Shown here: one piece after another, positions 1 through 64,000 of the stretch
Position numbering within the stretch: the first letter of the stretch is position 1
Layout of the letters: the number at the start of each line of letters is the position of its first letter
Assembly (NCBI RefSeq): GCF_004210375.1
Contig: NC_134828.1
Coordinates: 19,708,400-19,772,399, forward strand
Source of the DNA: Tachypleus tridentatus
Lineage: Eukaryota > Arthropoda > Merostomata > Xiphosura > Limulidae
DNA: 64,000 bases
Direction of reading: 5' to 3'
Notes under the pieces: model-generated
Database searches by the model: none
What the model was told of the DNA's origin: nothing
Seen by the model: only the letters and a program-made list of their open reading frames with translations
Translations under genes and position numbers: made by a program

Positions 1-469
1 ATCTTATGGAGAGGAATTAGAATACAAACTAACAAAATAAAATAAATAAATAAAAGATGATGTTCAGGTGAAGAATATAATATACCTTTATCCATCCTAC
101 AATTTTATATTATATCTAGTGTTCACTCATCTACCATAAACTGTGGATGAATCTGAAATTTGAGGTAAAGTATATAACTGATAACTGTTGTTATGTTACG
201 TTGAATTTCTCAAGTGAAATTCAAGAAATGGTTGTTTTGTTTATTATTATTATTATATTATTATTTTATTCTATTTTTTTTTCGGGTTGCATGACCAAAA
301 TATCAAACTCATGAGTGGGGTGAAGAGAATACCATGAGCAACCCTGGTTATCTCTGTTTTTAAGTAATGGGGACTCACATATTTAAACCGAAACACCTGC
401 CAGTCTTTTGTAGTTTTTTCTGTTCAATAATGGGGGTGTAGAAACCGTGCTATGGCCATACGTCTCATG
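1..469. other. distal flank of unit 0
   Basis: No gene is visible. Bases from about 181 to 469 are the reverse complement of the flanks at 33190-33480 and 50005-50285, including an ATT/AAT-rich stretch near 240-275. The first 180 bases are AT-rich and match nothing else that I can see in the window. Confidence 0.5.
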
Positions 470-1045
470 CTACTTACCAGACGTCTTATCCTGTGTTGAA
501 AAATCTCATGCCAATCGTCTTGCAATACTTGGATCAGCTGATATCTGTTCTGTGGTAATATATTGAGACTACTGGCCACCAGATATCTTGTTCTATATTG
601 AAGAATCCCATGTCACTTGTCCTGCAATATCTGGATCAACTGTTATCTGCTCTCTTTGTAATATTTGGAAGTGTTGTAGCCCACCTCATCCCATATATGT
701 TCAGTGGAGTGTAGGCAGTGGTAAGTATGGTGGTCGTAGCATTACGTCAACATATTCTGCATGGATACGTGCAGAGTGCAAATAAGCATTGTCCAGCTAC
801 AATACAGTGACATCATGGTAGTCTCTGAGGAAGAGAATTACGTGGGGTTTTAACACGTTAAGCATTCAGGTTCCTCTGTATGTGATATTCTGTGGTTGCC
901 TCCTCAATCCACGTCACTAGGTACACTCCAGTGATTGGTATGTCGTCATATTGTTTTCCTTCTCTTCTCCAGACAAGTTGAAGTCCATCAGACCCGACAA
1001 TACGAAAACGTGACTCATCTGTGAATAGAACAGTGTTCTATGGCT
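470..1045 (-). mobile_element. Tc1-like transposase relic (unit 0)
   Basis: On the reverse strand the segment near 1030-960 reads like the first catalytic block of Tc1 transposases (FTDESRF followed by GSDGLQLVW). Farther on, around 780-740, a block resembling 'ARIHAEYVV' follows, and after it a degenerate C-terminal part. About two copies of a ~102-bp segment lie at 480-700. It is the counterpart of 32520-33200 and 49345-50020. Many stops are present, so it is a dead element. The Tc1 superfamily is inferred from the DDE-type blocks; exact termini are not resolved. Confidence 0.65.
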
Positions 1046-1271
1046 TTAGTATAAAAGATATAGCCCTTTAATAATGTTTTAGTTGCTACTTTTCCCTACC
1101 AATACAAATCAGATACTTAATGTTCATATATATATATATATATGCACCTCGTAAAAATAAACAAAGACGTGTACAAAATAAATGACATTTACAATGCATC
1201 CACATTCATAATGTTTAGCCTCTGTTCAAAATAAATAATTCACCATTATCAGTGATTAGAAAATATCTGAT
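1046..1271. other. 3' flank of unit 0 with a short TA microsatellite
   Basis: Bases 1040-1170 match 16580-16690 (same strand) and the reverse of 31210-31330 and 49225-49350. A TA dinucleotide run lies at about 1129-1143. No gene is seen. Confidence 0.45.
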
Positions 1272-1465
1272 TTTGTTGGTTTTTTTGGAATTTCGCACAA
1301 AGCTACTCGAGGGCTATCTTGGGCTTCTTTTTTACCAACGAATAGTGGGATTGACCGTCACTTTATACACCCCCACGGCTGGGAGGGCGAGCATGTTTAG
1401 CGCAACGCGGGCGCGAACCCGCGACCCTCGGGTTACTAGTCGCACGCCTTACGCGCTTGGCCATG
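1272..1465 (-). mobile_element. tRNA-derived SINE, type 1
   Basis: The reverse strand starts with a tRNA-like head: an A-box-like 'TGGCCAAGCGCGTAAGG' and a B-box-like 'GGGTTCGCGCCCGC'. The body follows and ends in 'GCTTTGTGCGAAATTCC' and a T/A-rich tail. It is internally shortened against the copy at 57262-57530. It is absent from the corresponding place in units 1-3, so it inserted after duplication. The head resembles tRNA-Lys. Confidence 0.8.
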
Positions 1466-1734
1466 AAAAATATCTGAATAAAACATCTTTGCTGATATAT
1501 TCAGAATTGAGAACAAGAAAGTGATAGAGTCTAATCACGATACCACCTTTTCCAGCTGTCATGGTTTTAGTGAAACTCCAGTATCTTTACGTTATACACC
1601 TCCTGTCCTGAACAAACTATATTCAGATATCGAGATAATTCTCATGTTTATTTTATATGCTCTATAAACCCGATTTTAAAAGAGCTGATGTTGTTTAAAT
1701 GTTGTTGCTTTTAAATTTAGCTAATGTTGCTCCT

Positions 1735-2020
1735 GTCTTCGAGGAAAGTGAGAGAAATTGTCCACTAACATAGACCTATCAGTCTTACATCATGTGTGTA
1801 AAATGTTTTGGAAAGTCTGATAAAAGACGCTTTATAAAGTCATTTAACAAAATTTATTATTTTATCAGATATTCAACATGGTTTTAATGAGGAAAAATCA
1901 TATCTAACAAATATTTTAACATGATTTTAAAATGTTACTGGACACGTAGATGAGGATAAAGGTATGAATTTAGTGTATCTGGATTGTCAGAAAGCAGAAA
2001 GTGTCACATAAAAACTTATA
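1735..2020 (+). mobile_element. CR1/L2-like LINE reverse transcriptase fragment
   Basis: In shifting forward frames the stretch reads like the first reverse transcriptase blocks of a non-LTR retrotransposon: 'ANVAPVFEESER', then '...YQSYIM'-like sequence in place of the usual NYRPISLTS, then 'ILSDIQHGF', then 'DEDKGMNLVYLDCQKAES' where families have YLDFQKAFD. Several frame changes and stops show it is dead and truncated at both ends. The SLC35G 3' flank resumes at about 2030, matching 18100 onward, so the LINE was inserted only in unit 0. Bases 1480-1735 upstream show nothing recognisable. CR1 versus another non-LTR clade is not settled. Confidence 0.6.
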
Positions 2021-2509
2021 AACAAAGCGTGCGTGCAGGGTCTCATTCTAACAACTAATTTAATTACGTTTGTGTACTTTAATGGTATAAAAAACAAAAA
2101 CAATACAAAGTCCTACATTGTAAACTTCTATCATAAACTGTGTTTAGACTTAAGATAATTGAATAATGATACATATATTTTCTGTGTAATAATATTATTT
2201 TATCAGTTTCCAAATGTTTTTTGTTTCTATGAATGACCTCAGAGATCAATTTTTATAAACTATTAACAACATTTGTGTTACAGAATATTTAAATATACTT
2301 TTTCATGCATTTTAATAACTTAAACAAAGATTTCCACACTTTATACTTATATACTTTAACAGATAAACTAAGACTCATTAAAAGTATGTCGTTGATTATA
2401 AACACGTTTTCCAAATACACTTTAAGAAATGATATTATGAATTTCAATGTCCATATCGATCATATTACTCCTGTATAGAGAATTTAGTCGAAGCTTCTAT
2501 TAACTATTA
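2021..2509 (-). other. 3' flank of the SLC35G copy, unit 0
   Basis: This stretch matches the 3' flank of the SLC35G gene in unit 1 (18100-18610) and, reversed, those in units 2 and 3 (29400-29890 and 47340-47830). No ORF of note is present. Confidence 0.6.
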
Positions 2510-2854
2510 AAGTATCTTAAGCCTATTTTGTTCAAAGCATTCAAAAAACTCTCAAAACTTTCAGAATACCATTGAAGACATGCTTTCATTACTACTGCTA
2601 ATGTAATGAACACTGCACCTACCAACTCGACAAAGTTACATCTTCACCAGTTATCGTGATTTGAAAGATAAAAGAAAAAACAATTTCCAAGGAACCCACT
2701 AAAGCCACACAACAAGCCTTTTCAACGAAGAGGGCGTTAACATAAAAATACTGAGTGACAAAACTAAGTATTCCAATTCCAAATATAAACCAAATCACAG
2801 TTCCACATTCTGGAAAAACATTTTGTTTAAAAATAAACTGATAAGTGTATAACA
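2510..2854 (-). pseudogene. SLC35G 3' fragment (unit 0)
   Basis: The reverse strand encodes the last third of the EamA transporter seen intact at 46307-47332: the segment around PECGTVIWFIFGIGILSF, then VEKA-like, then the last helices and the WYSES tail region. Small indels break the frame, for example near 2620. At about 2854 the homology stops abruptly and continues with intron-1 sequence equivalent to 27180. The 5' two thirds of the coding exon, the intron minisatellite and the splice acceptor have therefore been deleted. It cannot make a transporter. Confidence 0.85.
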
Positions 2855-3710
2855 GTGGATATTTAATTTATCGATCTATGTCTTATTCGTTTCTTCACAA
2901 CATGAATAACACCAAGTGGAAGAGAATTATAATGAAAACCTCGGTTTATCAGTGGATATAAACTTTTCTAATCTAGTGACAACTTGTTTAGTGCTAGACA
3001 AATTTCTCAAATAAATCACCTGGAATTTACCGCCATCTGTTCTTTGAGGCAAACGTCGATAAACTAGACATTTTGATAACAACATCCAGACCGACAGTTT
3101 TACTTGTTTTGTTGTATACCATATGTAGTATAAAACTGTGATGTAGTTAGATTTTCTGACATTTGTGTTGACGATTTTGTGTGTTACATTACCCTTGATA
3201 TTTTTCATCGTTTGTCATTCTCTTTGCAAGTTTGATAACTTCTTTATGTGTTAGTTTATGTTTATATCTAAAGCATTCTGTCAAACAAACTCTTATCTAT
3301 ACCACACTAATCTCATGGTAAATAAACATATTTCAATACAAAACAAAGTATAAACTGAATTAGAATAAATCTTTCAGATTACTATGTCTGATGTGAAAAA
3401 AATTCCTTGGAGACAAAATAAAAGTTACTTACTTAAAACAGTAAAAGAATCTTTCCAATAAAACTTCAAACATCAAACGTAGCTCTTGTCTTTACATCAA
3501 TACTTGAACCTTTCAAATAAAAATGTGAAATGACGATTTCGCTTGCTTTAGTTTGGAGTTATATAACAATATCGAGACTGTCTTCTCAATGAAAAAATAA
3601 AATGTCATGCGTTTGAGAAGAAACCGTATAAATACAAATCAGGTTGAGACTGTAAAACCTCAGTTCAGAAGGTTCAAAAAGTAGTGACATCTGTTGAGCA
3701 GAACTTAAAT
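2855..3710 (-). pseudogene. SLC35G intron 1 and exon 1 relic (unit 0)
   Basis: Bases 2855-3420 match the 5' part of intron 1 in units 2 and 3 (26650-27180, 44500-45030). Exon 1 corresponds to 3433-3710. Its donor is kept on the reverse strand as 'TTTTAA|GTAAGTAAC' at 3433/3432. With the coding exon truncated, any transcript from here would not encode a full transporter. Confidence 0.7.
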
Positions 3711-3741
3711 GACGTAAAGGAGAATTAAAATTTTTAAATAG
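3707..3741 (-). promoter_or_regulatory. TATA + Inr core promoter (unit 0)
   Basis: On the reverse strand a TATTTAAA box starts at 3740 and a TCATTT initiator has its A at 3710, 30 bp downstream. The same pair in register occurs at 20589/20558, 26345/26377 and 44189/44221. Confidence 0.55.
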
Positions 3742-3920
3742 AAAAACAAAATGAACGAAATATTTAAAAGTTAAAGTTACGAATGATTCATGAAAGGAAA
3801 AGGGGTATTAATTAATAATTGGGAATTCGATCTGAAAATATTCAATAAGTGATTTTACACTTCGAAACCAAAGAAAGGTGAAAGTGATTTAAGAAATAAA
3901 TTTTGAAACGTGATAATAAC

Positions 3921-6010
3921 GTTAAAGTATATATTTTAATACATTGTAGTAGCCTCACATGGATGATGATGTTAAAGTATATATTTTAATACATTGTAGT
4001 AGCCTCACCTGGATGATGATGTTAAAGTATATATTATAATACATTGTAGTAGCCTCACCTGGATGATGATGTTAAAGTATATATTATAATACATTGTAGT
4101 AGCCTCACCTGGATGATGATGTTAAAGTATATATTATAATACATTGTAGTAGCCTCACCAGGATGATGATGTTAAAGTATATATTATAATACATTGTAGT
4201 AGCCTCACCTGGATGATGATGTTAAAGTATATATTATAATACATTGTAGTAGCCTCACCTGGATGATGATGTTAAAGTATATATTATAATACATTGTAGT
4301 AGCCTCACCTGGATGATGATGTTAAAGTATATATTATAATACATTGTAGTAGCCTCACCTGGATGATGATGTTAAAGTATATATTATAATACATTGTAGT
4401 AGCCTCACCAGGATGATGATGTTAAAGTATATAATATAATACATTGTAGTAGCCTCACCTGGATGATGATGTTAAAGTATATAATATAATACATTGTAGT
4501 AGCCTCACCTGGATGATGATGTTAAAGTATATAATATAATACATTGTAGTAGCCTCTCCTGGATGATGATGTTAAAGTATGTATTATAATACATTGTAGT
4601 AGCCTCACCTGGATGATGATGTTAAAGTATATATTTTAATACATTGTAGTAGCCTCACCTGGATGATGATGTTAAAGTATATATTATAATACATTGTAGT
4701 AGCCTCACCTGGATGATGATGTTAAAGTATATATTATAATACATTGTAGTAGCCTCACCTGGATGATGATGTTAAAGTATATATTATAATACATTGTAGT
4801 AGCCTCACCTGGATGATGATGTTAAAGTATATATTATAATACATTGTAGTAGCCTCACCTGGATGATGATGTTAAAGTATATATTATAATACATTGTAGT
4901 AGCCTCACCTGGATGATGATGTTAAATTATATATTATAATACATTGTAGTAGCCTCACCTGGATGATGATGTTAAAGTATATATTATAATACATTGTAGT
5001 AGCCTCACCTGGATGATGATGTTAAATTATATATTATAATACATTGTAGTAGCCTCACCTGGATGATGATGTTAAGGTATATATTATAATACATTGTAGT
5101 AGCCTCACCTGGATGATGATGTTAAAGTATATATTATAATACATTGTAGTAGCCTCACCTGGATGATGATGTTAAAGTATATATTTTAATACATTGTAGT
5201 AGCCTCACCTGGATGATGATGTTAAAGTATATATTATAATACATTGTAGTAGCCTCACCTGGATGATGATGTTAAAGTATATATTATAATACATTGTAGT
5301 AGCCTCACCTGGATGATAATGTTAAAGTATATATTATAATACATTGTAGTAGCCTCACCTGGATGATGATGTTAAAGTATATATTATAATACATTGTAGT
5401 AGCCTCACCTGGATGATGATGTTAAAGTATATATTATAATACATTGTAGTAGCCTCACCTGGATGATGATGTTAAAGTATATATTATAATACATTGTTGT
5501 AGCCTCACCTGGATGATGATGTTAAAGTATATATTATAATACATTGTAGTAGCCTAACCTGGATGATGATGTTAAAGTATATATTATAATACATTGTTGT
5601 AGCCTCACCTGGATGATGATGTTAAAGTATATATTATAATACATTGTAGTAGCCTCACCTGGATGATGATGTTAAAGTATATATTATAATACATTGTTGT
5701 AGCCTCACCTGGATTATGATGTTAAAGTATATATTATAATACATTGTTGTAGCCTCACCTGGATGATGATGTTAAAGTATATATTATAATACATTGTAGT
5801 AGCCTCACCTGGATGATGATGTTAAAGTATATATTATAATACATTGTTGTAGCCTCACCTGGATTATGATGTTAAAGTATATATTATAATACATTGTTGT
5901 AGCCTCACCTGGATGATGATGTTAAAGTATATATTATAATACATTGTAGTAGCCTCACCTGGATGATGATGTTAAAGTATATATTATAATACATTGTCGT
6001 AGCCTCACCT
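3921..6010. repeat. 50-bp minisatellite, about 42 copies
   Basis: A near-perfect head-to-tail array of a 50-bp unit begins 'gttaaagtatatattataat' and ends 'cacctggatgatgat'. Most copies differ by one or two bases, for example atattttaat for atattataat or cattgttgt for cattgtagt. Some variants recur in blocks, such as the alternating gtt/gta copies at 5490-5900. It lies just upstream of the unit 0 promoter. The same unit occurs about 7 times at 20770-21140 and is absent from the same place in units 2 and 3. Confidence 0.97.
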
Positions 6011-6336: not shown

Positions 6337-7296
6337 CTCATTCACGTAAAGTTACGCCTCATCTTGTGCCCCATGTTAAAAGGTATACATTTTTTTTATT
6401 TTCTAGAAATGGTGTGAAAAAATGGACATTTCCAGAACAATAGGGTACCCAAATTTACTGTATCTGTCAGTCTTGAAATTTCATCACTCTAAAAGAAACA
6501 TTGTTACAGTAAAGTGTACTGGTAGATGCTAATAAATTATTGTATTTTGATCAGATTAACATATCTTATGACAGGAATAACGTGAACACATCCTTACTAG
6601 GGTTTCAAGAAGAACAGAAACGAAAGACAGTTCAAACGAGGTTGTTTTGAAAGAAGGGCTAACCATTAATGTATATCAACCAGAATTATCTACCTTCACT
6701 ATGTTATTCAGGCAAGATAGCAAGCCAACAGTGGGATTAATAGTTGAAGGACGACTGTTATTTCCATATGGAACACATAAAGAGGTCGTGCAGTAAATGT
6801 TTTGGTAGTTATTTCTCGTGGTGAAAAAACTGCTCTTCATATCCTCCAGCGAAATGTCAACGGGACCTCCTCCTTACATCACATATATATAATATTTTTA
6901 ATATATGCTAGATTAAAGTTGAACAATAACTTTGTGTTCCAGTATTATAATGACATTTCACTTGGAGTACATATTTTAGAGTAGAAAGTTACAAGATCGA
7001 CATGGCCAGTAGAGCCTCCATATCTTATTCCCATTGATAACTGTTGGGTAGAAGTGAACCAGAAAATCGCTAACAAAAGCTCTAAATAAGCTATTGTAGG
7101 TGAGTTGCAGAGCCTTCTAGCGATAAGCTGAGATGAACTTACGATGAAGTATACCAGTAACCTTATCTACAGGCTGTGTTTCATTAAGATTATGCTGAGT
7201 TAGATGAAATGCTGAACATCTTGGCCAAGTATGCACTTAAATAGTTTCTTTCAGTGTTTAAAGTTAAACTTTAACGACTCTCAATATCTATTTTTT
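6337..7296 (+). repeat. family E repeat, partial copy
   Basis: From 'gtaaagttacgcctcatctt' onward this matches 21155-22200 on the same strand, and 8953-7940 in reverse. It meets the next copy tail to tail at about 7296. The encoded frames are broken. The family is unclassified; no transposase, integrase or reverse transcriptase is recognised. Confidence 0.7.
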
Positions 7297-8960
7297 CACC
7301 CATGGCGGGTTTGTGGTGATGGAAACATTTGATTTTATCAACAATTTTTTGGTTGAGGGATAGTATTGTAGTCATACCCATTATATAATACCCATGTTAT
7401 TTATATTTCCCAGTACTTAATTTACCAGTTTGAGGGTCCAAAGATAAAGCGAATATAGTTCTTTCAGTGCAGATGATAATGTATGTAGCATCAATTCTGG
7501 GAAGTAAAGGTGAATCCACTAATAGAACATCTCACCATATCCTCTTATTGGTCAGGGACTTCTTTCTTGACCAGTAATAGAGACAGCTGCAGGTGGTTTG
7601 AGTGACACCTTGTGTCGCGATAAGACAACATATACCATTTTACATTACTGGGAAATCCTGAGACTTAGTTTCACATGGCGTTCTTCATTATGGACTAATG
7701 AGCTAACCATTTGTAACATGTTGACAAATAATGTATCTTCATTCATCAGTTCTACACGATAAACACAAGTTCAGTCTCACAGTTGTAGATCTGAAATTGT
7801 CATAAGTACAACTGTTCTACAGAAAACTGCAATTCTGGAGGAACTAGTGAGTTTCAAAAGAAAATAAAATCCTGTGGTAACAATGAAAGGGAAGGCTGTA
7901 ATTCATTTTCACTGAAAATAAAATAATCGAACCACTAATTAGTCAAAAGAAAGATAGTGATATTCATTAAAGCTTAACTTTCGATAATGAAAGTCGCTAT
8001 TTAAGTGCATTGTTGCCATACTAGGCAAATAGACATGGAATGCTGTAGGTAAGGTTATTGATATACTTCATCGTAAGTTTATCCCAGCTTATCACTGGAA
8101 GGATCGGCAGCTCACTAAAAATAGCTTAATTAGAACTGTTGTCAGCGAGTTTCTGGGTCAGTTTAAAACAACAGTTGTAAATGGAATTAAAATATGTAGG
8201 CTCTACTGGCCATATCAATCTTGTAACTTCCTTCTTTAAAGTATGTACTGTAAATGTAACACAAAGTTATTGTTCAACGTAAACCTTAAATAGGTAGAAA
8301 TATTATCTACATGTGATGTTAGAATGAGATGTCATTGATATTTCGCTGGAAGATATGAAGAGCAGTTTTCACCACAAGAAATAGTTGCCAAAACATTTAC
8401 TGCACCACCTCATTATGTGTTCTGTTTGGAAAAGATAGTCGTCCTTCAAATGTTAATCCCACTCTCCAAATACTTCGAGTGATGAACATGAATCATACCA
8501 CCAAATTTAAAAAGCCAGAACAGGCTTATCAAAAACGTTTACATGTTGCCAGTGTCCTATCTGTGAACTGGCTAAATATTTTGCCTAAATAATATACTGA
8601 AGGTGGATAATTCTGGTTGATATACATTTATGGTTAGACCTTCTTTCAAAACAACCTCGTTTGAACTGTTCTTCTTGAAACCCTAGTAAGGATGTGATAA
8701 CGTTTTTCTTGTCATAAGATATGTTAATCTGATCAAAATGCAATACTTTAAATCAATAGTTTATCAACATCTACTAGTATACTTTCCTGGAACAATGTTT
8801 CTTTTACAGTGATGATATTTCAAGACTGACAGATACAGTAAACTTAGGTACCCTATTGTTCTGGAAATTTCGATTTTCTCACACCATTTCTGGAAAATCA
8901 AAAAAATTCATAACTTTTAAAATGGGACACAAGATGAGGCGTAACTTTACAACAAGTATA
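7297..8960 (-). repeat. family E repeat, inverted copy
   Basis: The reverse complement matches 21150-22880. It begins at 8953 with the terminal 'GTTACGCCTCATCTTGTG' and reaches the exon-like part near 7297-7760. Together with 6337-7296 it forms an inverted pair with arms of about 0.9 kb around an internal stretch. The terminal side joins sequence equivalent to 41095-41130, so family E sits at the edge of the large unit. Confidence 0.7.
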
Positions 8961-9314: not shown

Positions 9315-9485
9315 TATGACCAGGTGGTAAGCGCGATTAACTAGTATTCTGATCATCGTAGGTTCCAATCACTGTCACACCAAAGAAATTCGTTCTTTTA
9401 CCTGTAGAGGAGCTACATAGTCACAACCAATCCCACTGTTCGCTGGTAAAAGAGAAGCCCAGGGCTTCTTTAATTTTACGTTTGT
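9315..9485 (+). mobile_element. tRNA-derived SINE, type 1 (shortened)
   Basis: The tRNA-like head 'tatgaccaggtggtaagcg' is followed by 'aggttccaatcactgtcac' as the B-box region. Body parts 'cccactgttcgctggtaaaa' and a GTTT-rich tail at 9480 follow. Internally deleted against full copies. Confidence 0.75.
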
Positions 9486-10169
9486 TTATGTTTGTTTATT
9501 TATTTAGTATTTGAGTGTTTTCTATGGTTATGTTGTGTTTATATGACTTGCTATTTTCGCAAACGTGTGAAGGTGACTTTTTATGTTCTTTGAATCTGGT
9601 TTCCATTTTTCTGCTTGTTTCTCCAATACAGAAGTTGTGGCAGTTATTGTATTTTATAAATAATGTTGGTGTTCTGTTCGTCAGTGTTGTTTTTACATAG
9701 TATAGACTTCTGTTTTGTGCCTGGTTTTTGAATAAATTTGGTGTTAACTGTAATGTAATATTTTGTTGCTTGTTTTTGCCAAATGTTGGTTATTTTTCTG
9801 CTGAGTCAGTGTTGGCACTTGTGTTATTGTCATGTGTGTGAGAGTTATTACATAAAAAGGTAACTTTTCTTAGGTGAGTGTTGGCTATTGTGTTAATTTT
9901 GTGTGTATGAAAGCTAGTACACCACAAATGGTAACTTTACGTAGGTCAGTGTTTTGAGAGTTTTTTCATATGGATGTAATTTTTTTTAAAGGTGGAGAAG
10001 TCGTTTTCGTCTATAGATTGACAGAAGTTATCCCACTCTTTGTTCTACTGCTGTAATTTTAGTTCTTTGATGTAATTATTTTTCTCTATTAGTTAAAGTT
10101 TACATCTCTCTGTTGAGTGTGATAATAAATTGTAGTCTGATGATGTGGCCGTGAATGTATAGGGTTAAA
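9486..10169 (-). mobile_element. Penelope-like element fragment with GIY-YIG region
   Basis: The reverse strand of 9490-9720 is the counterpart of the GIY-YIG endonuclease end of the Penelope-like element at 57700-57960. The match includes the equivalents of NIIYKIQC and YIGE, although with substitutions and changed frames. Bases 9900-10060 continue with sequence equivalent to 57130-57240. The copy is a dead fragment. It is shared with unit 3 but deleted from unit 2, so it predates the duplication. Confidence 0.7.
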
Positions 10170-10611
10170 TTTTATGATTATATAATGAGTGAAAAGTTCT
10201 GTCTCAGAACTGTCTTAGATATAGCAGATTGAATTAATAACCTTAATGACTTTTCTTCCATGTGCTCGACAGGTGTGTGAAGGGGCGTTGTTGATAAGGG
10301 TTGTATTGAAATAGATCCTTCTTCCGCTCGAGTCAAGCCGCGGGCTGGTGGTTGGGGGTTGACGTTGGATGGGTGGTGTTGAAAATAGAAAAACGAGAGG
10401 GGGATCATGTTCACCCCAGTGTTTTTTAAAATGTGGGTGAATAATAATAAAAACAAGTGAAGAAAACCTGAAAATGTATCACTAGATGAATATCCATGAT
10501 GGTAGGAAAATGTGATGTGTATATTATTTACCTTGACCACTGTATCTCAAGTGGTCATTTCTAAGTTAAGGAACATAGAAAGAGAAAGAGAAGGTTCGTT
10601 CTCCAAATTGA
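10170..10611. other. shared unit flank
   Basis: This is the reverse complement of 40315-40800 and of 55735-57000 excluding the mariner there. Short ORFs in it are not preserved between copies, so I do not call a gene. Confidence 0.5.
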
Positions 10612-10886
10612 CCAAGGATGGTTTCGTGGTTATGGCGCTCGACTCGCAATCTGAAGTTGTGAGTTCGAATCCTTGTCACACCAAATATGCAGGCCCTTTC
10701 AGCCGTTGCAGCGTTATAATATTACGATCAATCCTCCTGTTCTTTGGTAAAAAGTAGCCCAAGTGTTGGCGGTAGATGTTGATGAGTGGCTGCCTTCCGT
10801 CTAGTTTTGCACTGCTAAATTAGCGACTGTTAAAGTAGATAGCCCCCGTGTGGATTTTCGTAATATACAAAACAAGCAAACAAACC
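10612..10886 (+). mobile_element. tRNA-derived SINE, type 1 (full length)
   Basis: The head carries 'gttatggcgctcgactcgca' and the B-box 'gagttcgaatccttgtc'. The body has 'gtagcccaagtgttggcgg' and 'actgctaaattagcgac', and the tail is 'aagcaaacaaacc'. Copies at the same place occur in unit 2 (40040-40312) and unit 3 (55455-55732), so it was present before the unit was copied. Confidence 0.88.
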
Positions 10887-11469
10887 TTCACGCAGTCGGC
10901 AAGATATGTTTGACTGGTTTTAAAATGTCTGGCTTCCCAGATCTTGAATATCTACAAAATTAAAATTATTTCCGTTAAATAAAAGTTGAGAGAAACATAC
11001 ACTGTGATATTCCACAGTAAGTTACAGCTACCGTGTTTTGACACTGGTGTGTCTTTTGAAATATACGCTGATACACATGTGTTCGATTCACAAACATCTG
11101 TCTTAGGAAAGTCGAACTTTAGAAAATTTGTCTTCAAATGTTTGTGACATGTTTTTTGTCTGTTTTGTAAAACTTCCGTGTTGTTCAAAATAAATAACTG
11201 ATAATTTTTAGCAATTAAAATAAAAATAACCGGGAACAAAAGTAAAAAAAGTTTACATGGTCTTCAGAATCTGTCAACAAAAAAAGATTTTTAAATTGTT
11301 TGTTCAAACCACATTCAGTCAAGATTGTGACGAGTCGGTAACCAAGGTGTCACGTTCTATCTTGGGCTGAGTGAAAATAAAATATACTTCTTACTGACCG
11401 CCTGGTTTCAGTCTGTTTATGAGAATATTATAACAAGATATAACAAGAGAAGATTTTCTCTCTTGTTAT
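10887..11469. other. shared unit flank without a gene
   Basis: Reverse complement of 39510-40035 and 54890-55450. AT-rich, with no ORF preserved between copies beyond about 60 codons. The only open stretches are in segments that do not look coding. Confidence 0.45.
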
Positions 11470-11910
11470 TGTTATTTTTAAAAAACAGTTCACGATGTTC
11501 ACTACTTAACATGAAGATGATCGTGTTTTTAATGTTTCTGTTCTGTTTGTTATGTATTCCACTTTACATAGAGTTGATGGTGTTTCTTATGTTTGTATTC
11601 TGTTTGTTGTGTACTTTACTTAACATAGAATTGATAGTGTTTTTAATGTTTTCTGTGTACTCCACTTATTTTGTAATGAATACTGTTTTTAATGTTTGTA
11701 TATTTGTTGTGTACTCCACATAAGACAGAGTTGATTGTGTTTTAATGTTTGTATATTTGTTGTGTACACCACTTAACATAGAATTGAAAGTGTTTTTAAT
11801 GTTTGTATTCTGTTTCTGAGGTTTTCAATTATCATAGAGTTTACAGTATTTTTATTGTTTGTATTCTCTTTGTTGTTTACTCCATTCATCATATTGTTGA
11901 TGGTGTTTTT
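11470..11910. repeat. degenerate ~50-60 bp minisatellite
   Basis: Repeats of the form 'gtttttaatgtttgtattct' followed by 'tgttgtgtactccactta' and 'acatagagttgat' recur about every 50-60 bases. The same array, reversed, is at 37480-37870 plus 39050-39480 (unit 2) and 54440-54840 (unit 3). Confidence 0.75.
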
Positions 11911-12059
11911 AAAAGACAGAACAAGTCGTACTATCTTTGGATAGTCGATACAGTGAGTGATAGTTAATAGCTGCAATAATGGGGTTTCGATTAATAGATG
12001 GATTAGTGATGGTGTCTTTTATTAACGGATACAATAACTGATAGTGTCTCTTTCAAGAG

Positions 12060-33665: not shown

Positions 33666-33669
33666 GGGA

Positions 33670-50351: not shown

Positions 50352-50470
50352 AACGGCTGATGTGGGCCTCAGGGCCCCTTCAACGGCTGATGTGGGACTC
50401 AGGGCCCTTCAAAGGCTGATGTGGGACTCAGGGCTCTTCAACGAGTGATGTGGTACTCAGGATCTTTCAG
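50352..50470. repeat. 29-bp minisatellite, about 4 copies
   Basis: Same unit as at 33535-33665. Confidence 0.85.
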
Positions 50471-50479
50471 AGCCGGAGG

Positions 50480-51968: not shown

Positions 51969-52529
51969 TGTCTCTGACACTTGTAAGGAAGAATTTCCAT
52001 TTTCCGTACTCCTGTTTTTCATATTCTTCGTGATTTATAGTTAACTCTGCTCGAACATCTAGAATATGATATAAAAATAAAATATAGCTATAAGCTTTTA
52101 ACATGTGTTCAGAGAAACATATAGTAGAAAAAGTCAAAACTAAATCAATAGCTGAACACTTATTTCTTACCTTTAAAACAATAATAAATTAAGTTATTAT
52201 TTAGTTGTTGTTCACTCACTGACCATTACAGATTACACAGTAAACATTACAGTATTATTTCAATCTTACAACCATGAATACTGTTGGTTTGGTTCACAAA
52301 TACAACCTACGTATTTACCTTGGTACAGTCAGAGGAGAATCCTCGTTCATTAGAAAATCATGTTGCTACCCTGGTTATCAATTATCCTGTTGTCACAAAT
52401 GGTTTTGTAGATCGGAGACGTACACTATGTGTCCCATGTATTAGATATAAAGAGTTCTAACTGTATTGAATTTCATTATTCTGTTTCAAGTGACCCTTCT
52501 TTTAAAATATCCTTGCTTTAATTTTTATA

Positions 52530-53130
52530 CGGTATAATACGATGGATATTTTGTTATATTTTAGAATACAGCACTTTGGATATATTATTATATATAGTGT
52601 ATGGTACTGTGTATCATTTGTTAGATTTTAGAGTATTGAAATGTGGTTATTTTATAAAATTATATTACATGGTACTGTGGATATTTGGTTACATTTTAGT
52701 ATATGGTACTGTGGAAATTTTGTTCTACTTTAGTGTATAGTACTGTGGATATTTTATTATATTTTAGTGTATGGAATTGTGTTTTTGTATTATATTTTAG
52801 TAAACGGTACTGCGGTTATATTTTAGTGTATGCTACAATGGATATTTTATTATAGTTTAGTATGTAATGTGGATATTTTGTTACATTTAGTATCTGATAC
52901 CATGGAGAGCTTATTATATTTTAGTATATGATAGTGTAAATATTTTAATATTTTTCAGTAAATAGTACTGTAGTTATTTTATTATATTTTAGTATGTGGT
53001 AATGTGGATATTTTGTTATATTTTAGTGTATGGTACTGCGAATATTTTGTTATATTTTAGTGTATGGTACTGCGAATATTTTGTTATATTTTAGTGTATG
53101 GCACTTTTGAATGTTTATGGTTCTGTGGAT
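52530..53130. repeat. 34-bp minisatellite (unit 3 fragment)
   Basis: About 18 reverse-orientation units such as 'gtgtatggtactgcgaatat'. Two adjacent units near 53040-53090 are identical. Confidence 0.88.
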
Positions 53131-53679
53131 ATTTTATTTACCGACCTGTGTCTTTTTGTTTCTTTCACAACCTGAATAACTCCAACTGGAAGGGAATTAT
53201 ATCTGAAAAACCTTCATTTACCAGAGGATCTAGCTTTTCTAAGTGTTAGACTTAAATAAATCACCCAGAATTTACTATCATCTCATGTTTGAGACCGATA
53301 ATCCATAAACTGTTTTTGAAACATCCTTCAGACAACTAGTTTTATTATGTTGATCTAATAAATAAAGTAAATTCTCAGTATTTCTCTATATATATTATTT
53401 TGTCTAGAACAAGAGAACAGTTCCAACAACTGTATAGAATTATATTAACGTGAGTTCCTTTTTCAATATATCTACATATGGCTGTACATTTGTTGAAAAC
53501 ACGATAATTATAAACATACATAACAACATGCTGTAAAACACATGTGGATCTAAAACTTAGATGACTCATGTTTGTGAATGTGTAATTTATCATAAAACGG
53601 ATGGAACTTCAAGTGGATTTCTCGTTATCAACTACGATGTGTAATTTACTCACATTTGTTCCGATGATTTTTTTTGTTT

Positions 53680-53825
53680 ACTTTAGTGTCAACGAACAGT
53701 GGGATTAACCGTCACATTGTATTTTCCTCATGTCTGACAAAATATATATGTTTGGATAAATGGGGATTCGAAACCGTGACTTTCAGACTACGAGTCAAGC
53801 ACCTTAGTCAAATGGTCCATGTTAC
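53680..53825 (-). mobile_element. SINE type 1, 5' part
   Basis: Same insertion as 12530-12765 and 36735-36880; the B-box region is 'ggtttcgaatccccatttat' on the reverse strand. Confidence 0.78.
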
Positions 53826-54149
53826 ATTACACTCGATATTGTTTTCATCGTTTGTCATTCTGTTTGCAAGTTTGATAACTTCTTTATGTGTTAGTTTATG
53901 TTTGTCCCTGAAACATTCTGTCACACACTCTTATCTTCACGAAACAATCTGATGGTAAATAAACACATTTCAATACTAAACAAAACAAAAACTGGATAAC
54001 AGTAAATATATCAAGTTAATGTGTAAAATGGCCAAACATGAGTCTTGTTTTTACATCAAGATCGGAACTCTTCAAATAATGAATAAAATTCCTGACCTAA
54101 ATAGCACCTTGTTTCAGCCTTTTATCTAGCTGATATTTATTTTAATTTT

Positions 54150-54288
54150 TATTGATTGATTGTTTGAATTAAGTACAAAGCTACACAATGATCTATTTGT
54201 GCTCCGCTTAACACACCTATCGAAACTCGGATTTTTAATGGTGGGTGTTCGCAGATATAATGCTCTGCCACTGGAGGACATTAACTCT
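54150..54288 (-). mobile_element. SINE type 2
   Basis: Same insertion as 12060-12205 and 37190-37328. Confidence 0.75.
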
Positions 54289-54439
54289 TGAAAGACACAC
54301 TATCAGTTATTGTATCCGTTAATAAAAGACACCATCACTAATCCATCTATTAATCAAAACCCCATTATTGCAGCCATTAACTATCACTCACTGTATCGAT
54401 TATCCAAAGATAGTACGACTTGTTCTATCTTTTAAAAAC

Positions 54440-54860
54440 ACCATCAACAATATGATAAATGGAGTAAACAACAAAGAGAATACAAACAATAAAACACTGT
54501 AAACTCTATGATAATTGAAAACCTAAGAAACAGATTATAAGCATTAAAAATACTATCAACTCCATCCTAAGTGGAGTACACAACAAATATACAAACATTA
54601 AAACACAATCAACTCTGTCTTATGTGGAGTACACAACAAATATACAAACATTAAAAACAGTATTCATTACAAAATAAGTGGAGTGCATAATAAACATTAA
54701 AAACACTATCAATTCTATGTTAAGTAAAGTACACATCAAACAGAATACAAACATAAGAAACACCATCAACTCTATGTAAAGTGGAATACATAGCAAACAG
54801 AACAGAAACATTAAAAACACGATCATCTTTATGTTAAGTAGTGAACATCGTGAACTGGTT
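54440..54860. repeat. degenerate ~50-60 bp minisatellite (unit 3)
   Basis: Same array as at 11470-11910 and 37480-39480, here uninterrupted by a Tc1 element. Confidence 0.75.
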
Positions 54861-55454
54861 TTGAAAAATAACAATAACAAGAGAGAAAAACTTCTCTTGT
54901 TATATCTTGTTATAATATTCTGATAAACAGACTGAAACCAGGCAGTCAGTAAGAAGTATATTTTATTTTCACTGAGCCCAAGATAGAACGTGACACCTTG
55001 GTTACCGACTCGTCACAATCTTGACTGAATGTGGTTTGAACAAACAATTTAAAATCTTTTTTTGTTGACAGATTCTGAAGACCATGTCAACTTTTTAACT
55101 TTTGTACCCGGTTATTTTTATTTTAGTTGCTAAAAATTATCAGTTATTTATTTAAACAACACGGAAGTTTCACAAAACAGACAAAAAACATGTCACTAAC
55201 ATTTGAAGACAAATTTTCTAAAGTTCGACTTTCGTAAGACAGATGTTTGTGAATCCAACACATGTGTATCAGCGTATCTTTCAAAAGACACACCTGTGTC
55301 AAAACACGGTAGCTGTAACTTACTGTGGAATATCACAGTGCATGTTTCTCTCAACTTTTATTTAACGGAAATAATTTTAACTTTGTAGATATTCAAGATC
55401 TGGGAAGCCAGACATTTTAAAACCAGTCAAACCAGTCTTGCCGACTGCGTGGAG
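54861..55454. other. shared unit flank
   Basis: Counterpart of 39500-40039 and the reverse of 10887-11460. No gene. Confidence 0.45.
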
Positions 55455-55732
55455 GTTTGTTTGCTTGTTTTGAATATTACGAAAATCCACACGGGGACTA
55501 TCTACGTTAACAGTCGCTAATTTAGCAGTGCAAAACTAGACGGAAGGCAGCCACTCATCAACATCTACCGCCAACACTTGGGCTACTTTTTACCAATGAA
55601 CAGGAGGATTTATCGTAATATTATAACGCTCCAACGGCTGAAAGGGCCTGCATATTTAGTGTGACGAGAATTCGAACTCACAACTTTAGATTGCGAGTCG
55701 TGCACCATATCCACTTGTCTATGCTTGGTCAA
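55455..55732 (-). mobile_element. SINE type 1
   Basis: Same insertion as 10612-10886; full body and AAAC tail near 55455. Confidence 0.85.
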
Positions 55733-55933
55733 TGTGGAGAACGAACCTTCTATTTCTCTTTCTATGTTCCTTAACTTAGAAACGACCACTTGAGATACAG
55801 TGGTCAAGGTAAATAATATACACATCACATTTTCCTACCGTCATGGATATTCATCTAGTGATACATTTTCAGGTTTTCTTCACTTGTTTTATTATTATTC
55901 ACCCATGTTTTAAATAACACTAGGGTGACAATA

Positions 55934-56805
55934 CGAGGGCTGTTCAAAATACGCGAACTGACGTCATAAAACAAAATGTACTTTATTTAGAAGTCTGGGA
56001 CCCCTTAAAGTACTCTCCTCCCCAACGCACACACTTATCCCAACGGTGTTTCCACTTGTTGAAACAGTCCTGGTACACTTCTTTTGTAATGTCCTCCAGC
56101 TCCTTCGTCGCATTTGCCTTAATCTCTGGAATCGTCTCAAATCTTCTTCCTTTCAAGAGTCTTTTGGGAGCAAGGAGCAAGGTCAGGTGAGTAGGGGGGT
56201 GGGGAAGAACAGTGATCAAGTGTTTGGCCAAAAACTCACGAGTTCTGAGGGCTGAATTTCGCAGCAACGCGGTGCATCTTCAATTTTTGGTCAAAATCTC
56301 GTAACCAGATCCAACTGATATCCCACACTCTTCAGCAAGCTCCTGACAGTCAGACGCTGATTTGCCCGCACCAGTGTGTTGATTTTGTCAACGTGTGGGT
56401 CGTCAGTTGACGTGGAAGGACGTCCAGGACGCTCATCATCTTCAATGGACTGTCGACCATCCTTAAAACGTTCATGCCACTTGAAACATGCCGTGCGCTT
56501 CATAGCAACATCACCGTAAGCCGTGTTAAGCATAACAAAAGTTTCAGTCGCAGATTTTCCAAGTTTAACACAAAATTTCACAGCAAGTCGTTGCTCCTTC
56601 AGGTCATTCATTCTGAAATCCGCCAAACGAAAAATCGCACTTCACTTAAAACCGCGTAGCTAATACACAAATAAAGATATCTGCAATCGGGAAATGGCGT
56701 CGTAATCAGCTGATCTGTGCAAACCTAGCAACACCAAGCGGATTCTTCTGGAACCAACTGGAGCCGCGCAATTCAAACTGTCGCGTATTTTTTGAACAGA
56801 TCTCG
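55934..56805 (-). mobile_element. mariner transposon, internally deleted, with TIRs
   Basis: Ends are inverted: left 'cgagggctgttcaaaa' and right (reverse strand) 'cgagatctgttcaaaa', each followed by TACGCG. The reverse strand has an N-terminal part, MADFRMNDLKEQRLAVKFCV with 'KRTACFKWHERFKDGRQS' (56626-56320). This is the helix-turn-helix region of mariner transposases. After a jump comes the C-terminus 'EDITKEVYQDCFNKWKHRW' and WGGEYFKG (55983-56267). The catalytic core, with the first two Asp residues, is deleted, so 870 bp remain of about 1.3 kb. Units 1 and 2 have the empty site, so this is a post-duplication insertion. Confidence 0.9.
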
Positions 56806-57261
56806 TGAACCCTTTCCTTTTCTAGTTTCAATACCACCCTTCCACAACCATCCCTCCAACCGCGATCTATTTCAATTCAACCCTATCAACAACATCCCTT
56901 TACACACCCAACGATACATGAGAGAAAAATCACAAGGTTATTAATTCAATCTGCTGTAGATAACACAGTTCTGAGACAGAACTTTTCACTCAATATTTAA
57001 GCATGGAATTTAACCCTAGACATTCACGGCCACATCATCAGACTCCCATTTATTATCACACTCAACAGAGAGATGTAAACTTTAACTAATAGAGAAAAAT
57101 AAGTATATCAAAGAACTAAAAATACAGCACTAGAACAAATAGTGGGATAACTTCTGTCAATCTATAGACGAAAACGACCCTACCACCTTTTGTAAAAAAA
57201 AAAAAATCCATATGTAATAACTCTTATACATATGACAATTGCACAAGAAACAAAACTGATA
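56806..57261. other. distal part of unit 3, start of Penelope-like sequence
   Basis: Bases 56806-57120 match 40540-40870 and the reverse of 10060-10360. From about 57120 a frame resembling 'WDNFCQSIDEND' probably belongs to the Penelope-like element. Confidence 0.45.
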
Positions 57262-57530
57262 TGGCCTGGCATGGCCAAGCGTGTTAAGGCGTGCGACTCG
57301 TAATCTGAGGGTGGCGGGTTCGCATCCCTGTCGCGAAACATGCTTGCCCTTTCAGCCGTGGGGGAGTTATAATGTGATGGTCAGTCCCACTGTTCGTTGG
57401 TAAAAGAGTAGCCCAAGAGTTGGCGGTGAGTGGTGATGACTGGCTGCATTCCCTCTAGTCTTACACTACTAAATTAGGGACGGCTAGCAGAGATAACTCT
57501 GGGTTATCTTTACTAAATTCCAAAAACAAA
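57262..57530 (+). mobile_element. SINE type 1, best full-length copy
   Basis: Head 'tggccaagcgtgttaaggcg', B-box 'ggcgggttcgcatccctgtc', body 'attataatgtgatggtcag', 'agtagcccaagagttggcgg', 'ctagtcttacactactaaat', and the tail 'caaaacaaacaaaac'. It sits inside the Penelope-like fragment. The head fits a tRNA-Lys-like origin. Confidence 0.92.
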
Positions 57531-58200
57531 ACAAACAAAACTGGCCTAAGAAAAGCTACCTTATTATGTAATAACATTAATACACAAGACAATAACACAA
57601 GTACCAACATTGACTGAGCACAAAAATATCCAACATAGACAAGTAACAAAATATGACATTCCAGTTAATACCAAATTTATTGAAAAACCAGGCACAAAAC
57701 TAGAGGTCTATACTATGTAAAACTACACTGACAAACACCACACCAACATTATTTATAAAATACAATGTGATAACTGCCACGACTTCTATATTGGAGAAAC
57801 AAGTAGAAAAATGGAAACCAGATTCAAAGAACATAAAAAGTCACCTTCACACGTTTTCGAACACTGCAAGTCAAATAAACACAACATAACCATAGAAAAC
57901 ACTCAAATACTAAATAAAGAAACAAACATAATCAAACGCAAAATTAAAGAAGCCTTACTTATACAACAACTTAAACCCAAAATAAAACAATACAAAGGAA
58001 CACCTTTATACCTATATTAATAGATATAATCAAACATCTAAGCACGCCCTCTACATTCCTACACTCAGTTACACAACCCCTTTCAAACATGTGGTCAGTT
58101 TTCGGTCAGTTACCTCTTCCTTTTTTGTGAACCTAACGGTGACCGATCGCAGAAGGTCGAAACGTTGTTCACTCCTCTGGAGCTTTCTCTACCATATCAA
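57531..58200 (+). mobile_element. Penelope-like element, GIY-YIG end (unit 3)
   Basis: Forward frame at 57745-58020: 'NIIYKIQCDNCHDFYIGETS' then 'RKMETRFKEHKKS' and 'EALLIQQLKPKIKQYKG'. This is the GIY-YIG endonuclease domain at the C-terminus of Penelope-like retroelements, with the IY...YIG pair and the following Arg. A terminal sequence follows with 'aaggtcgaaacgttgttcac' (58155-58174), typical of such elements' ends. The reverse transcriptase part is not present here. Dead fragment. Confidence 0.82.
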
Positions 58201-61407: not shown

Positions 61408-61907
61408 NNNNNNNNNNNNNNNNNNNNNNNNNNNNNNNNNNNNNNNNNNNNNNNNNNNNNNNNNNNNNNNNNNNNNNNNNNNNNNNNNNNNNNNNNNNNN
61501 NNNNNNNNNNNNNNNNNNNNNNNNNNNNNNNNNNNNNNNNNNNNNNNNNNNNNNNNNNNNNNNNNNNNNNNNNNNNNNNNNNNNNNNNNNNNNNNNNNNN
61601 NNNNNNNNNNNNNNNNNNNNNNNNNNNNNNNNNNNNNNNNNNNNNNNNNNNNNNNNNNNNNNNNNNNNNNNNNNNNNNNNNNNNNNNNNNNNNNNNNNNN
61701 NNNNNNNNNNNNNNNNNNNNNNNNNNNNNNNNNNNNNNNNNNNNNNNNNNNNNNNNNNNNNNNNNNNNNNNNNNNNNNNNNNNNNNNNNNNNNNNNNNNN
61801 NNNNNNNNNNNNNNNNNNNNNNNNNNNNNNNNNNNNNNNNNNNNNNNNNNNNNNNNNNNNNNNNNNNNNNNNNNNNNNNNNNNNNNNNNNNNNNNNNNNN
61901 NNNNNNN
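61408..61907. other. assembly gap (500 N)
   Basis: Exactly 500 N, a conventional placeholder for unknown length. Left flank is Penelope-like reverse transcriptase; right flank is unit 4 at sequence equivalent to 24105. Confidence 0.99.
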
Positions 61908-62002
61908 TTTATGCATTCAGAGTCCGTTAATATTACTGTCTATTAAAGTGAACAGGTTATTTTTGTTTAAATAATCTTGTGCTTGGTAGGTTTTTTTTTT
62001 CA
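61908..62002. other. start of visible unit 4
   Basis: Matches 24107-24202 and 42006-42099. Confidence 0.5.
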
Positions 62003-62125
62003 GGCCCGGTAATGACCCAGATGGATAAGGCACTCGACTTGTGTTTAAAAAAGCGGTTTGAATCCCCGTCACATCAAACATGGTCGCCATTTTAGACGTG
62101 GCATTATAATGTGACGGTCAATATT
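62003..62125 (+). mobile_element. SINE type 1 (5' part)
   Basis: Same insertion as 24203-24345 but with several small indels in the head, probably sequencing errors. Confidence 0.8.
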
Positions 62126-62329
62126 TTGTTTTGGATGTAAAATTTCAATGGACATACATCTGATGGAACACAAAAGAAGCACAAATAACTTTAAAAAAGT
62201 GTCTTTCTTTTTTTTTTTTTTTCTTCCCAATATACTTCCAGCTACAAATAATGGTTGTTTATATAGTTAGAATTGTTTAATGAAACTTTGAAAAGGTAAA
62301 TAATTATTCTTTACATATTACTGATCATC

Positions 62330-62553
62330 CCGGTTGGTACATTTGTGAAGACCCCAACAATGGCTGGCATGTTGGCTAAGACATCAATAAAATGTATTTT
62401 TCTCGCGTCAGAAAGCTAGAAATACAGTGAATATAATTTCTTCTAAGGACTGTAACATCGCTTAGTGGCAAGAAGTTTAAAAAAGTTATACAAGAACAAT
62501 ATACCTATCGTCCGATACCTCTGGATGAAAATTATTAAATACTGGAACAAAAT
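62330..62553 (-). pseudogene. internal SLC35G fragment, antisense (unit 4)
   Basis: Sister of 24512-24771 and 42408-42666. Several bases are missing ('tctcgcgtcagaaagctaga' for 'tctcgcagtgtcaataaagc'), which break the frame. Confidence 0.8.
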
Positions 62554-62929
62554 ATAGTATTATGTTTTGTTTCTGTGTGAAATAAATATGTTATTTGAGA
62601 ACGGCTGGTATTGGTATTAACAGTTTTATTGATGAGGAGAACAAATTAGACATTCCTTTCATCTTCAAGGTAAGAAAAGATGACCGAAAGGGCTAAACGT
62701 TGTTCTCACTTTATTTAATATATACCAGCCGTCTTGAGATACATTTTTACAAGTGTGTTTCTCGTCTTCAAGAATGATCTCAAAACAGAAGACGAAAGTC
62801 TATCAAAACGGTTTCCTCACACTTGTGTTTCTACAACAGACAGTTGCTGTATAACTAAGTTTCAGATAAATACATATGTTCATGAAAACACAGAAAACCA
62901 ACACATATATAAGTATTCACAACAAGTAA
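62554..62929. other. upstream flank of unit 4, joined to the intron minisatellite
   Basis: Matches 24772-25130, including the Penelope-end inverted arms (62625-62710). At about 62885 it jumps to the intron-1 minisatellite. About 2 kb with promoter and exon 1 is therefore absent from unit 4. Confidence 0.55.
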
Positions 62930-63430
62930 AAAAATATCCACAGTACAAAATATAGAATAGAATACGATAAAATATCCACAGTATCATACATTAAAATAAA
63001 AGCAAAATATCCACAGTACAATACATTAAAATATAACAAAATCCACAGTACATACAGTAAAGTATGACAGAATATCCATAGTACAATACACTAAAATATA
63101 ACAAAAATCCACAGTATAGTTAAAGTAGTATGACAGAATATCCATAGTAAAATACACTATCATATTCTAAAATATACATCATACCATACATAAAAGTATA
63201 ATAAAATATGCATAGTAACATACTCTAAAATGTAACAAAATATCCGCAGTACCATACATTAAGTGTGATAAATAATCCACAGTACTACACACAAAAAAAT
63301 ATCACAAAATATTCGCAGTACCATATGCTATAACATAAACAAATATCCACAGTACCATACGCAAAAAGACAACAAAACATCTACAGTATTATACACTAAA
63401 AGACAACACAATTTCCACCGTATTATGCAC
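62930..63430. repeat. 34-bp minisatellite, SLC35G intron 1 (unit 4)
   Basis: About 14 copies; the order of variants is closest to 27400-27880 of unit 2. Confidence 0.9.
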
Positions 63431-63878
63431 TAATATAAAATAAAAGTATTTAAAAACAAGGGTCATTTGAGGAATAATGAAAATAAATACAGTAAGAACT
63501 CTTTATATCTAATACATGGGAAAATTGTTGTACGTCTCTGATCTAGAAAATTATTTGTGATAACAGGATAATTGATAACCAGGGACGGCAACATGACTTT
63601 CTTCTGGACGAGTATTCTTATTTTATAAAGACGTAAGTTGTATTTCTGAACCAAACAAAGAGTATTCATGGTTTTAAGATTGAAATAAAACTGTAATATT
63701 TTCTGTGTAAACTGTGATGGTTAGTGAGTTGTCAACAATAACTAAATAATAATTTGATTTATTATTGTTAGAAATAAGTGTTCAGCTCTTTATTGAATTT
63801 TGAATTTTTCTACTATATGTTTCTCTGAACACATTTTAAAAGCTTACAGATGTATTTTATTTTTCTATCATATTCTAG

Positions 63879-64000
63879 ATTGTCCGAACAAAGTTAAGTA
63901 TTTCAGGAAGAATATGAGAAACAGGAATACGGAAAGAGGAAACACTTCCTTTGAAGTATCAAAACATTTGGATCTCCCTTTCAGAAAATCAAATTTCCTG
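63879..64000 (+). pseudogene. SLC35G: SLC35G 5' part of coding exon (unit 4, cut by window end)
   Basis: Exon 2 starts after 'catattctag' at 63878; the start codon is at 63914 (MRNRNTERGNTSFEVS). Sequence to the window end matches unit 2 (28327-28450) except for one missing A near 63961 ('tatcaaaacat' for 'tatcaaaaacat'), which shifts the frame. No promoter or exon 1 is present upstream. The rest lies outside the window. Confidence 0.8.

What the first reader, a model, noticed from the sequence alone, without database searches (positions are those of the whole stretch)
1..64000. Five-copy mosaic segmental duplication built on an SLC35G gene
The whole window resolves into units 0(-), 1(-), 2(+), 3(+) and 4(+) of about 18-20 kb. 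Each carries the same order: promoter, intron minisatellite, coding exon, small ORFs, Tc1 relic, LINE, inverted SLC35G fragment, SINEs. Two units on one strand followed by three on the other is unusual for simple tandem duplication and implies at least one inversion or palindrome-mediated step. The pattern is directly visible; the history is inferred.
Basis: partly seen in the sequence, partly recalled or inferred. Interest (0 to 1): 0.75.

Follow-up and report, generated by a model that had tools for sequence, protein, structure and literature searches.

The report
Satellite-laden SLC35G-like transporter gene array
The window is a slice of a much larger cluster of copied transporter genes, probably in a horseshoe crab, in which one of two versions of the gene's front end carries its own 50-base satellite repeat, from a few to several hundred copies, at a nearly fixed distance before the gene.

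Summary
The repeats and strand switch are real, but "five copies" is the window's frame. It lies in a C4 array reaching at least 19.24-20.02 Mb with 26 EamA (SLC35G-like) coding loci, plus one at 17.815 Mb. Units -,-,+,+ lie in gap-free sequence; the fifth follows a 500-N gap. Units are not alike: u0's gene is truncated, u4 is cut by the window edge, the Tc1 relic is in u2, u4, u5 only. New: two discrete 5' cassettes. In one search, 40 matches split into 13 at 93-100% (class B) and 27 at 79-81%, none between. A/B fixed differences drop from 41 in 430 bp before the ATG to 3 in the coding exon: a true mosaic. The strand switch is an A|B boundary whose sequence recurs, wholly or partly, at three more places. 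A 50-bp satellite stands upstream of 13 of 13 genes classed A by sequence, at 1618-1664 bp in 12; by an A-type edge pattern, at 0 of 13 class B genes. Whether the many one-base frameshifts are consensus errors or real decay is open.

The parts
475..3842 (-). unit u0 gene part: class A 5' region (2852-3842) and truncated coding exon (codons ~220-341, 2503-2867)
3921..6010 (-). u0: 50-bp satellite, 41.8 copies, upstream of the gene
6346..8950 (.). element X with imperfect inverted arms (6346-7299 / 7942-8950): foldback-like
9463..16470 (-). u1: downstream part of unit, including 30-bp minisatellite 15603-15967
13326..14832 (+). u1: inverted SLC35G 5' fragment with 34-bp array and first 19 codons (14776-14832)
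18616..19634 (-). u1: coding exon, class A, two 1-bp indels relative to u3
20761..21140 (-). u1: 50-bp satellite, 7.6 copies
21141..23700 (.). A|B head-to-head junction: satellite edge joined to an arm of an X-type element, then 39-bp repeats, then class B unit; sequence recurs wholly or partly at three other places
23701..41590 (+). unit u2 (class B), 17.9 kb
24551..24766 (-). u2: upstream inverted SLC35G fragment, codons ~88-159 (in u3 at 42447-42662)
28362..29386 (+). u2: coding exon, class B, one 1-bp deletion relative to u3
37875..39022 (-). Tc1-like relic (DDE_3 in 38049-38393); also in u4 and u5
41591..57954 (+). unit u3 (class B)
45032..45832 (+). u3: 34-bp minisatellite upstream of coding exon, class B
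46307..47332 (+). u3: intact 341-codon EamA transporter coding exon
51969..53105 (-). u3: inverted SLC35G 5' fragment (34-bp array, acceptor flank, first codons)
55929..56860 (-). u3 only in held DNA: mariner piece (HTH_48 in 56294-56641)
61408..61907 (.). 500-N assembly gap between u3 and u4
61908..64000 (+). u4 (class B): first 2.1 kb only; unit continues to window position 77176

Best explanation
The window is part of a large array of an EamA (SLC35G-like) transporter gene on C4. Shown in this assembly: repeated ~18-kb units; two alternative 5' cassettes, A and B, joined to nearly the same coding exon and 3' flank; a 50-bp satellite upstream of each class A gene located, and none seen at class B genes; a head-to-head A(-)|B(+) junction whose sequence occurs four times. 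Inferred: tandem units arose by unequal crossing-over; gene conversion or crossover between units homogenised the coding exon and 3' side while the two older 5' cassettes stayed apart; one ancestral inversion or fusion at the satellite edge, next to a foldback-like element, made the head-to-head join, which later duplications multiplied; the satellite grew and shrank separately at each gene by unequal exchange or slippage. Whether the array is kept by selection on the transporter is not shown.
For: Array extent and copies. Unit spacing about 18-20 kb and identity: u2/u4/u5 97.5-98.3% over 15-18 kb, u3 to them 91-92%. Mosaic: five class A copies (u1, f1-f4) differ from u3 by 14.7-16.6% in 45840-46306 but by 3.0-3.8% in the coding exon and 5.0-5.7% in the 3' flank; class B copies differ from u3 by 4.9-5.8% in that 5' stretch. 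41 fixed A/B differences before the ATG, 3 in the coding exon, 9 in the next 1.3 kb. u5 upstream is 1.2% from u3 and 3.3-4.1% from u2 and u4, while its coding exon is 0.3-0.4% from u2, u4 and u6. Bimodal classes, 13 and 27 of 40 matches. Satellite edge 1618-1664 bp from the ATG at 12 of 17 edges. Junction copies at 96-98%.
Against: Gene conversion and crossover are not told apart. u0 is more diverged (12.4% in 476 bp of 3' flank) and does not fit the homogenised picture. The inverted-fragment stretch 51969-53105 differs by 6-16% between units. Array order comes from one assembly with 500-N gaps inside the array; alleles placed side by side could mimic some duplications, e.g. the second A-A|B-B block near 19.97-20.02 Mb. 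Coding changes are neutral-like (66 nonsynonymous: 22 synonymous against 67:21 expected at kappa 1).
Confidence: 0.76

Rival explanations
1. Much of the apparent duplication is uncollapsed haplotypes or mis-scaffolded contigs in a repetitive array.
For: 500-N gaps at window 61408-61907 and 98721-99220 and three more in the 200 kb held further left. f1(-)/f2(+) are 98% alike over 16 kb and lie on two sides of a gap. The A-A|B-B order recurs about 257-260 kb downstream with u3-like segments 99% identical.
Against: Inside gap-free sequence um1(+), u0(-), u1(-), u2(+), u3(+) differ from one another by 6-16% over the parts that align, far beyond alleles as a rule; u4 and u5 lie in one gap-free stretch at 98.3%.
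Confidence: 0.15
2. The array is largely a graveyard: most copies are pseudogenes and amplification is unrelated to the gene.
For: Only 7 of 27 loci match over codons 1-340 or more with no stop; 3 of 11 near-full held copies are open. Neutral-like substitution counts. Private one-base indels are as common in the coding exon (12 in 11 copies, 6 of them in u6) as in the 3' flank (9 in 11 copies over a longer stretch, 3 in u6). u2 and u4 share one 1-bp deletion.
Against: Four close pairs carry 20-21 one-base indels in 8.4-10 kb whether they differ by 38 or 99 substitutions, 63 of 82 in runs of 4 or more, as consensus error would give; taken as error this is 1.2 per exon per copy and predicts 30% open. 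But in four more distant pairs only 7-12 of 18-30 are in runs, and private indels in the flank are far fewer, about 0.4 per kb without u6, so error alone does not explain all the frameshifts. Only one in-register stop by substitution, in f2, was seen in 11 near-full copies; counted as single-step changes, 2 of 90 against 3.1-4.0 expected, not significant. u6, just after a gap, has 12 indel events (one at the end of the extract) but 0.3% substitutions from u5: error is likely there.
Confidence: 0.45
3. 5' divergence between A and B reflects faster change of the 5' region rather than exchange of the rest.
For: The classes keep a few fixed differences in the exon and 3' flank, so they are not wholly mixed.
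Against: In the pairs tabled, the 5' stretch differs by 0-6% within a class, like the 3' flank, and by 14-17% between classes.
Confidence: 0.1

Closest known systems
Tandem gene clusters of horseshoe crabs (PMC7210998, abstract start and 12 passages seen)
   Same: lineage-specific tandem arrays; [quoted passage not shown]
   Different: 'SLC35', 'solute carrier' and 'satellite' do not occur in its main text (supplements not seen)
Human multicopy loci such as DEFA1A3 (PMC4117965, search listing only)
   Same: copy number change at a tandem gene locus
   Different: here a satellite array of up to 24 kb (35 kb beside a diverged relative) stands before one class of gene; no comparison was run
D4Z4/DXZ4 macrosatellites (recalled; PMC3081327 seen in a search listing only)
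   Same: large, variable tandem arrays
   Different: D4Z4 and DXZ4 units are kilobases (recalled); here the repeat is 50 bp and lies outside the coding exon
50-bp repeats upstream of trypanosome VSG expression sites (recalled)
   Same: kilobases of about 50-bp repeats upstream of members of a large gene family
   Different: no evidence of switching or exclusive expression here; sequences not compared

Membership tests
EamA / SLC35G-like transporter | two EamA domains (PF00892), about 340 aa | tested here: met
   PF00892 E 7.4e-25, 88.2 bits, two stretches, 341 aa
EamA / SLC35G-like transporter | orthology to vertebrate SLC35G rather than other EamA proteins | not tested
   no reference SLC35G sequence compared; the name is recalled
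Segmental duplication array | long (>1 kb) blocks at >90% identity, several copies | tested here: met
Mosaic segmental duplication | segments of one copy with different nearest relatives | tested here: met
Simple head-to-tail tandem array | all copies on one strand | tested here: not met
   strands mixed
Satellite DNA | long homogeneous tandem array | tested here: met
   680 of 700 units identical to the consensus in C4:19408987-19444080; 3375 copies of a 30-base piece in the genome at up to 2 mismatches
Xiphosura (horseshoe crab) genome | coagulogen gene | tested here: met
   PF02035 in 19 places, best 1.5e-25; that this marks Xiphosura is recalled; other chelicerates not excluded
Functional gene copies under purifying selection | fewer nonsynonymous changes than neutral | tested here: not met
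   66:22 against 67:21; pairs with u3 give 0.36-0.69, other pairs up to 4.4 on very few changes

The most novel reading that the evidence does not exclude
The 50-bp satellite is a working part of class A genes: array length sets or switches the expression of each copy (by local chromatin or by small RNA), while class B genes use a different 5' region with a 34-bp array, so the cluster is a two-promoter-type repertoire. Inverted gene fragments downstream (and, in class B, also upstream) could make antisense or hairpin RNA against the family.
Probability: 0.07. Interest if true: 0.85.

Novelty: new variant of a known kind. Interest (0 to 1): 0.5.

Why it matters
A satellite seen so far only in this gene cluster, one array per class A gene at a nearly fixed distance and in lengths from 380 bp to 24 kb in the copies held (35 kb beside a diverged relative), is a natural series for asking how satellites are born, how they spread by gene duplication and whether repeat length alters expression. 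The sharp 5' boundary of homogenisation near the coding exon gives a case in which promoter divergence and coding-sequence exchange can be measured apart.

Tried and rejected
Five simple copies of one unit: rejected. X' as inverted relative to its neighbours: first thought so, dropped because X has inverted arms, so its direction is ambiguous. Homogenisation by a cDNA: considered and rejected because the homogenised stretch runs past the exon. Rfam: 0 matches; tRNAs: 0; solved structures: 0; one variant pattern gave 0 matches. NCBIfam gave one match, 28.5 bits against a cut-off of 230.2. Ten paper searches were run; four named SLC35 or solute carrier family 35, the others horseshoe crab genomes or satellites. 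No listing described this cluster. Four papers were opened for passages only: PMC7011531, PMC7815833, PMC7210998, PMC7487162. The first three do not contain 'SLC35' in the main text. PMC7487162 reports 610 SLC transporters in Limulus, the highest of 173 arthropods, and has SLC35 twice; the passages shown do not mention this cluster. No other horseshoe crab genome could be compared.
Full report
Where it is. The window is C4:19708400-19772399 of a 2.17-Gb genome in 205 contigs. A coagulogen family search gave 19 matching places, so it is probably a horseshoe crab; that coagulogen marks horseshoe crabs is recalled, not tested. COX1 on C205 reads through 12 TGA codons, as in animal mitochondria.

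The observation. Self-comparison shows the claimed blocks. With 30 kb to the left and 40 kb to the right added, ~18-kb units continue past the window as u5 and u6, and a further unit, um1, lies to the left. In the whole genome the u3 protein finds 27 separate coding loci at 17.815 and 19.26-20.02 Mb (my joining of rows; 118 of 931 candidates scored, so a lower bound); two more remnants, u0 and one near 19.407 Mb, were seen only in held DNA. Another, more diverged cluster lies at 31.8-33.8 Mb, at about 42-70% protein identity. Strands are mixed. The units differ: see the observation check.

Two classes. The stretch just before the coding exon of u3 (45840-46306) matches 40 places, all on C4 (40 of 56 candidates were scored, so a lower bound). 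Thirteen are 93-100% identical, all beside coding loci at 19.680-20.012 Mb (class B). Twenty-seven are 79-81% identical: 12 lie beside coding loci on the same strand (class A) and 15 do not. I take the 15 as inverted fragments; 7 of them lie in DNA that I hold and map to the inverted fragment, the other 8 are inferred. Nothing lies between 81 and 93%. Two of the 27 coding loci were not in that list: u1, class A by sequence, and one at 19.987 Mb, which I class A only by the satellite and A-type flank beside it.

Mosaic. In 11 aligned copies (u0 left out, being truncated) there are 41 fixed A/B differences in the 430 bp before the ATG, 40 of them upstream of -64, then 3 in the 1023-bp coding exon and 9 in the next 1.3 kb; columns with a gap were not counted. 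In the pairs tabled, between-class divergence falls from 14-17% before the exon to 2.5-3.8% in it, and is about 5% in the 3' flank; within-class values are 0-6% in the 5' stretch. The truncated u0 is higher (4.4% and 12.4%). u5 joins a u3/u6-like upstream part to a u2/u4/u6-like exon.

The satellite. A 50-bp unit stands upstream of class A genes: 41.8 copies in u0 and 7.6 in u1 in the window; 19, 182, 8.8 and 485 copies at f1, f2, f3 and f4. A further array of 167 copies is cut by a gap, and the largest held, about 700 copies at 19408987-19444080, has 680 of 700 units identical to the consensus; the gene piece beside the latter is a diverged relative and its gene-side edge differs, so it is not counted as class A. 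The genome holds 3375 copies of a 30-base piece at up to 2 mismatches. Places were listed only in part: 100 of 3375, 100 of 148 for one variant and 19 of 19 for another; every place listed in these was on C4 at 17.78-17.82 or 19.2-19.8 Mb. Seventeen gene-side edges of the class A type were found, all on C4. Twelve lie 1618-1664 bp from the ATG of the 12 class A genes; u1's is at 1114 bp; one is beside the 19.987-Mb gene; three (u0, 19.669 and 19.971 Mb) have no full coding exon found beside them. So 13 of 13 genes classed A by sequence have an array, and the 19.987-Mb gene, classed by its array, proves nothing. None of the 17 edges lies before a class B gene (0 of 13), but that edge pattern is class A sequence, so a B-type edge would be missed; 6 of the 13 class B genes (um1, u2-u6) lie in held DNA, where all 48 matches of the satellite piece fall in the window and the arrays found are those of u0 and u1. 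This is one inherited character, not many independent events. By eye, the flanks run on in class B without the array.

The strand switch. It is the join of u1 (class A, minus) and u2 (class B, plus) at 21.14-23.7 kb. u1's satellite ends at 21140 and an arm of an X-type foldback-like element begins at 21143. A search with 20500-24000 found the join again at 19989272 (98%, positions 262-2666) and 19921735 (96%, reversed, 374-2666), both with some satellite in the match, and at 19673481 (98%, 640-3501), where the match starts at the satellite edge and satellite is listed up to 19673003. A class A coding locus stands beside the join in the window and at 19.989 Mb; at 19.673 Mb there is a satellite edge (19668659) without a coding exon; at 19.92 Mb only a piece of satellite was seen. 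A class B gene stands on the other side in all four. The simplest reading is one rearrangement at the satellite edge, then copying of the block.

Are the genes alive? Seven of 27 loci match codons 1-340 or more with no stop. Of 11 near-full held copies, 3 are open (um1, u3, f3). Four close pairs of units carry 20-21 one-base indels each, whatever their substitutions, 63 of 82 in runs, which looks like consensus error and would leave about 30% of exons open. Against this, four more distant pairs show only 7-12 of 18-30 in runs, and private one-base indels are only 9 in 11 copies of the 3' flank and 12 in 11 coding exons, half of the latter in u6. So error is likely in u6 and possible elsewhere, and the question stays open. 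Substitutions give 66 nonsynonymous to 22 synonymous, as neutral; pairs with u3 give dN/dS 0.36-0.69, other pairs 0.38-4.4 on few changes. Selection on the protein is unproven.

What it does. The coding exon encodes an EamA-family transporter; its substrate is unknown to me. The satellite's role, if any, is untested; an expanding repeat carried along by gene duplication is my default.

Verdict. The notable addition is the class-linked satellite.

Noticed in passing
C4:19408987-19444080 (L025-L028): 35-kb array of the 50-bp unit, 680 of 700 units identical to the consensus, beside a diverged EamA gene piece
   Followed up: partly
C4:31.8-33.8 Mb: another EamA cluster at about 42-70% protein identity; further EamA groups on C2, C8, C9 and C13
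   Followed up: no
window 15603-15967: 30-bp minisatellite, open in frame on the minus strand (ORF 15498-16040, 180 aa); no Pfam match for 15501-16136
   Followed up: partly
window 58322-59084: 83-bp minisatellite in the tail of u3, near a GIY-YIG domain (Penelope-like by recall)
   Followed up: no
window 51237-51960: this stretch also occurs at 69-75% identity over most of its length on C2, C7, C8, C9, C13 and C19: a dispersed element
   Followed up: no
C4:19.97-20.02 Mb: a second A-A|B-B block like the window's, about 257-260 kb downstream; duplication or a misplaced haplotype
   Followed up: partly
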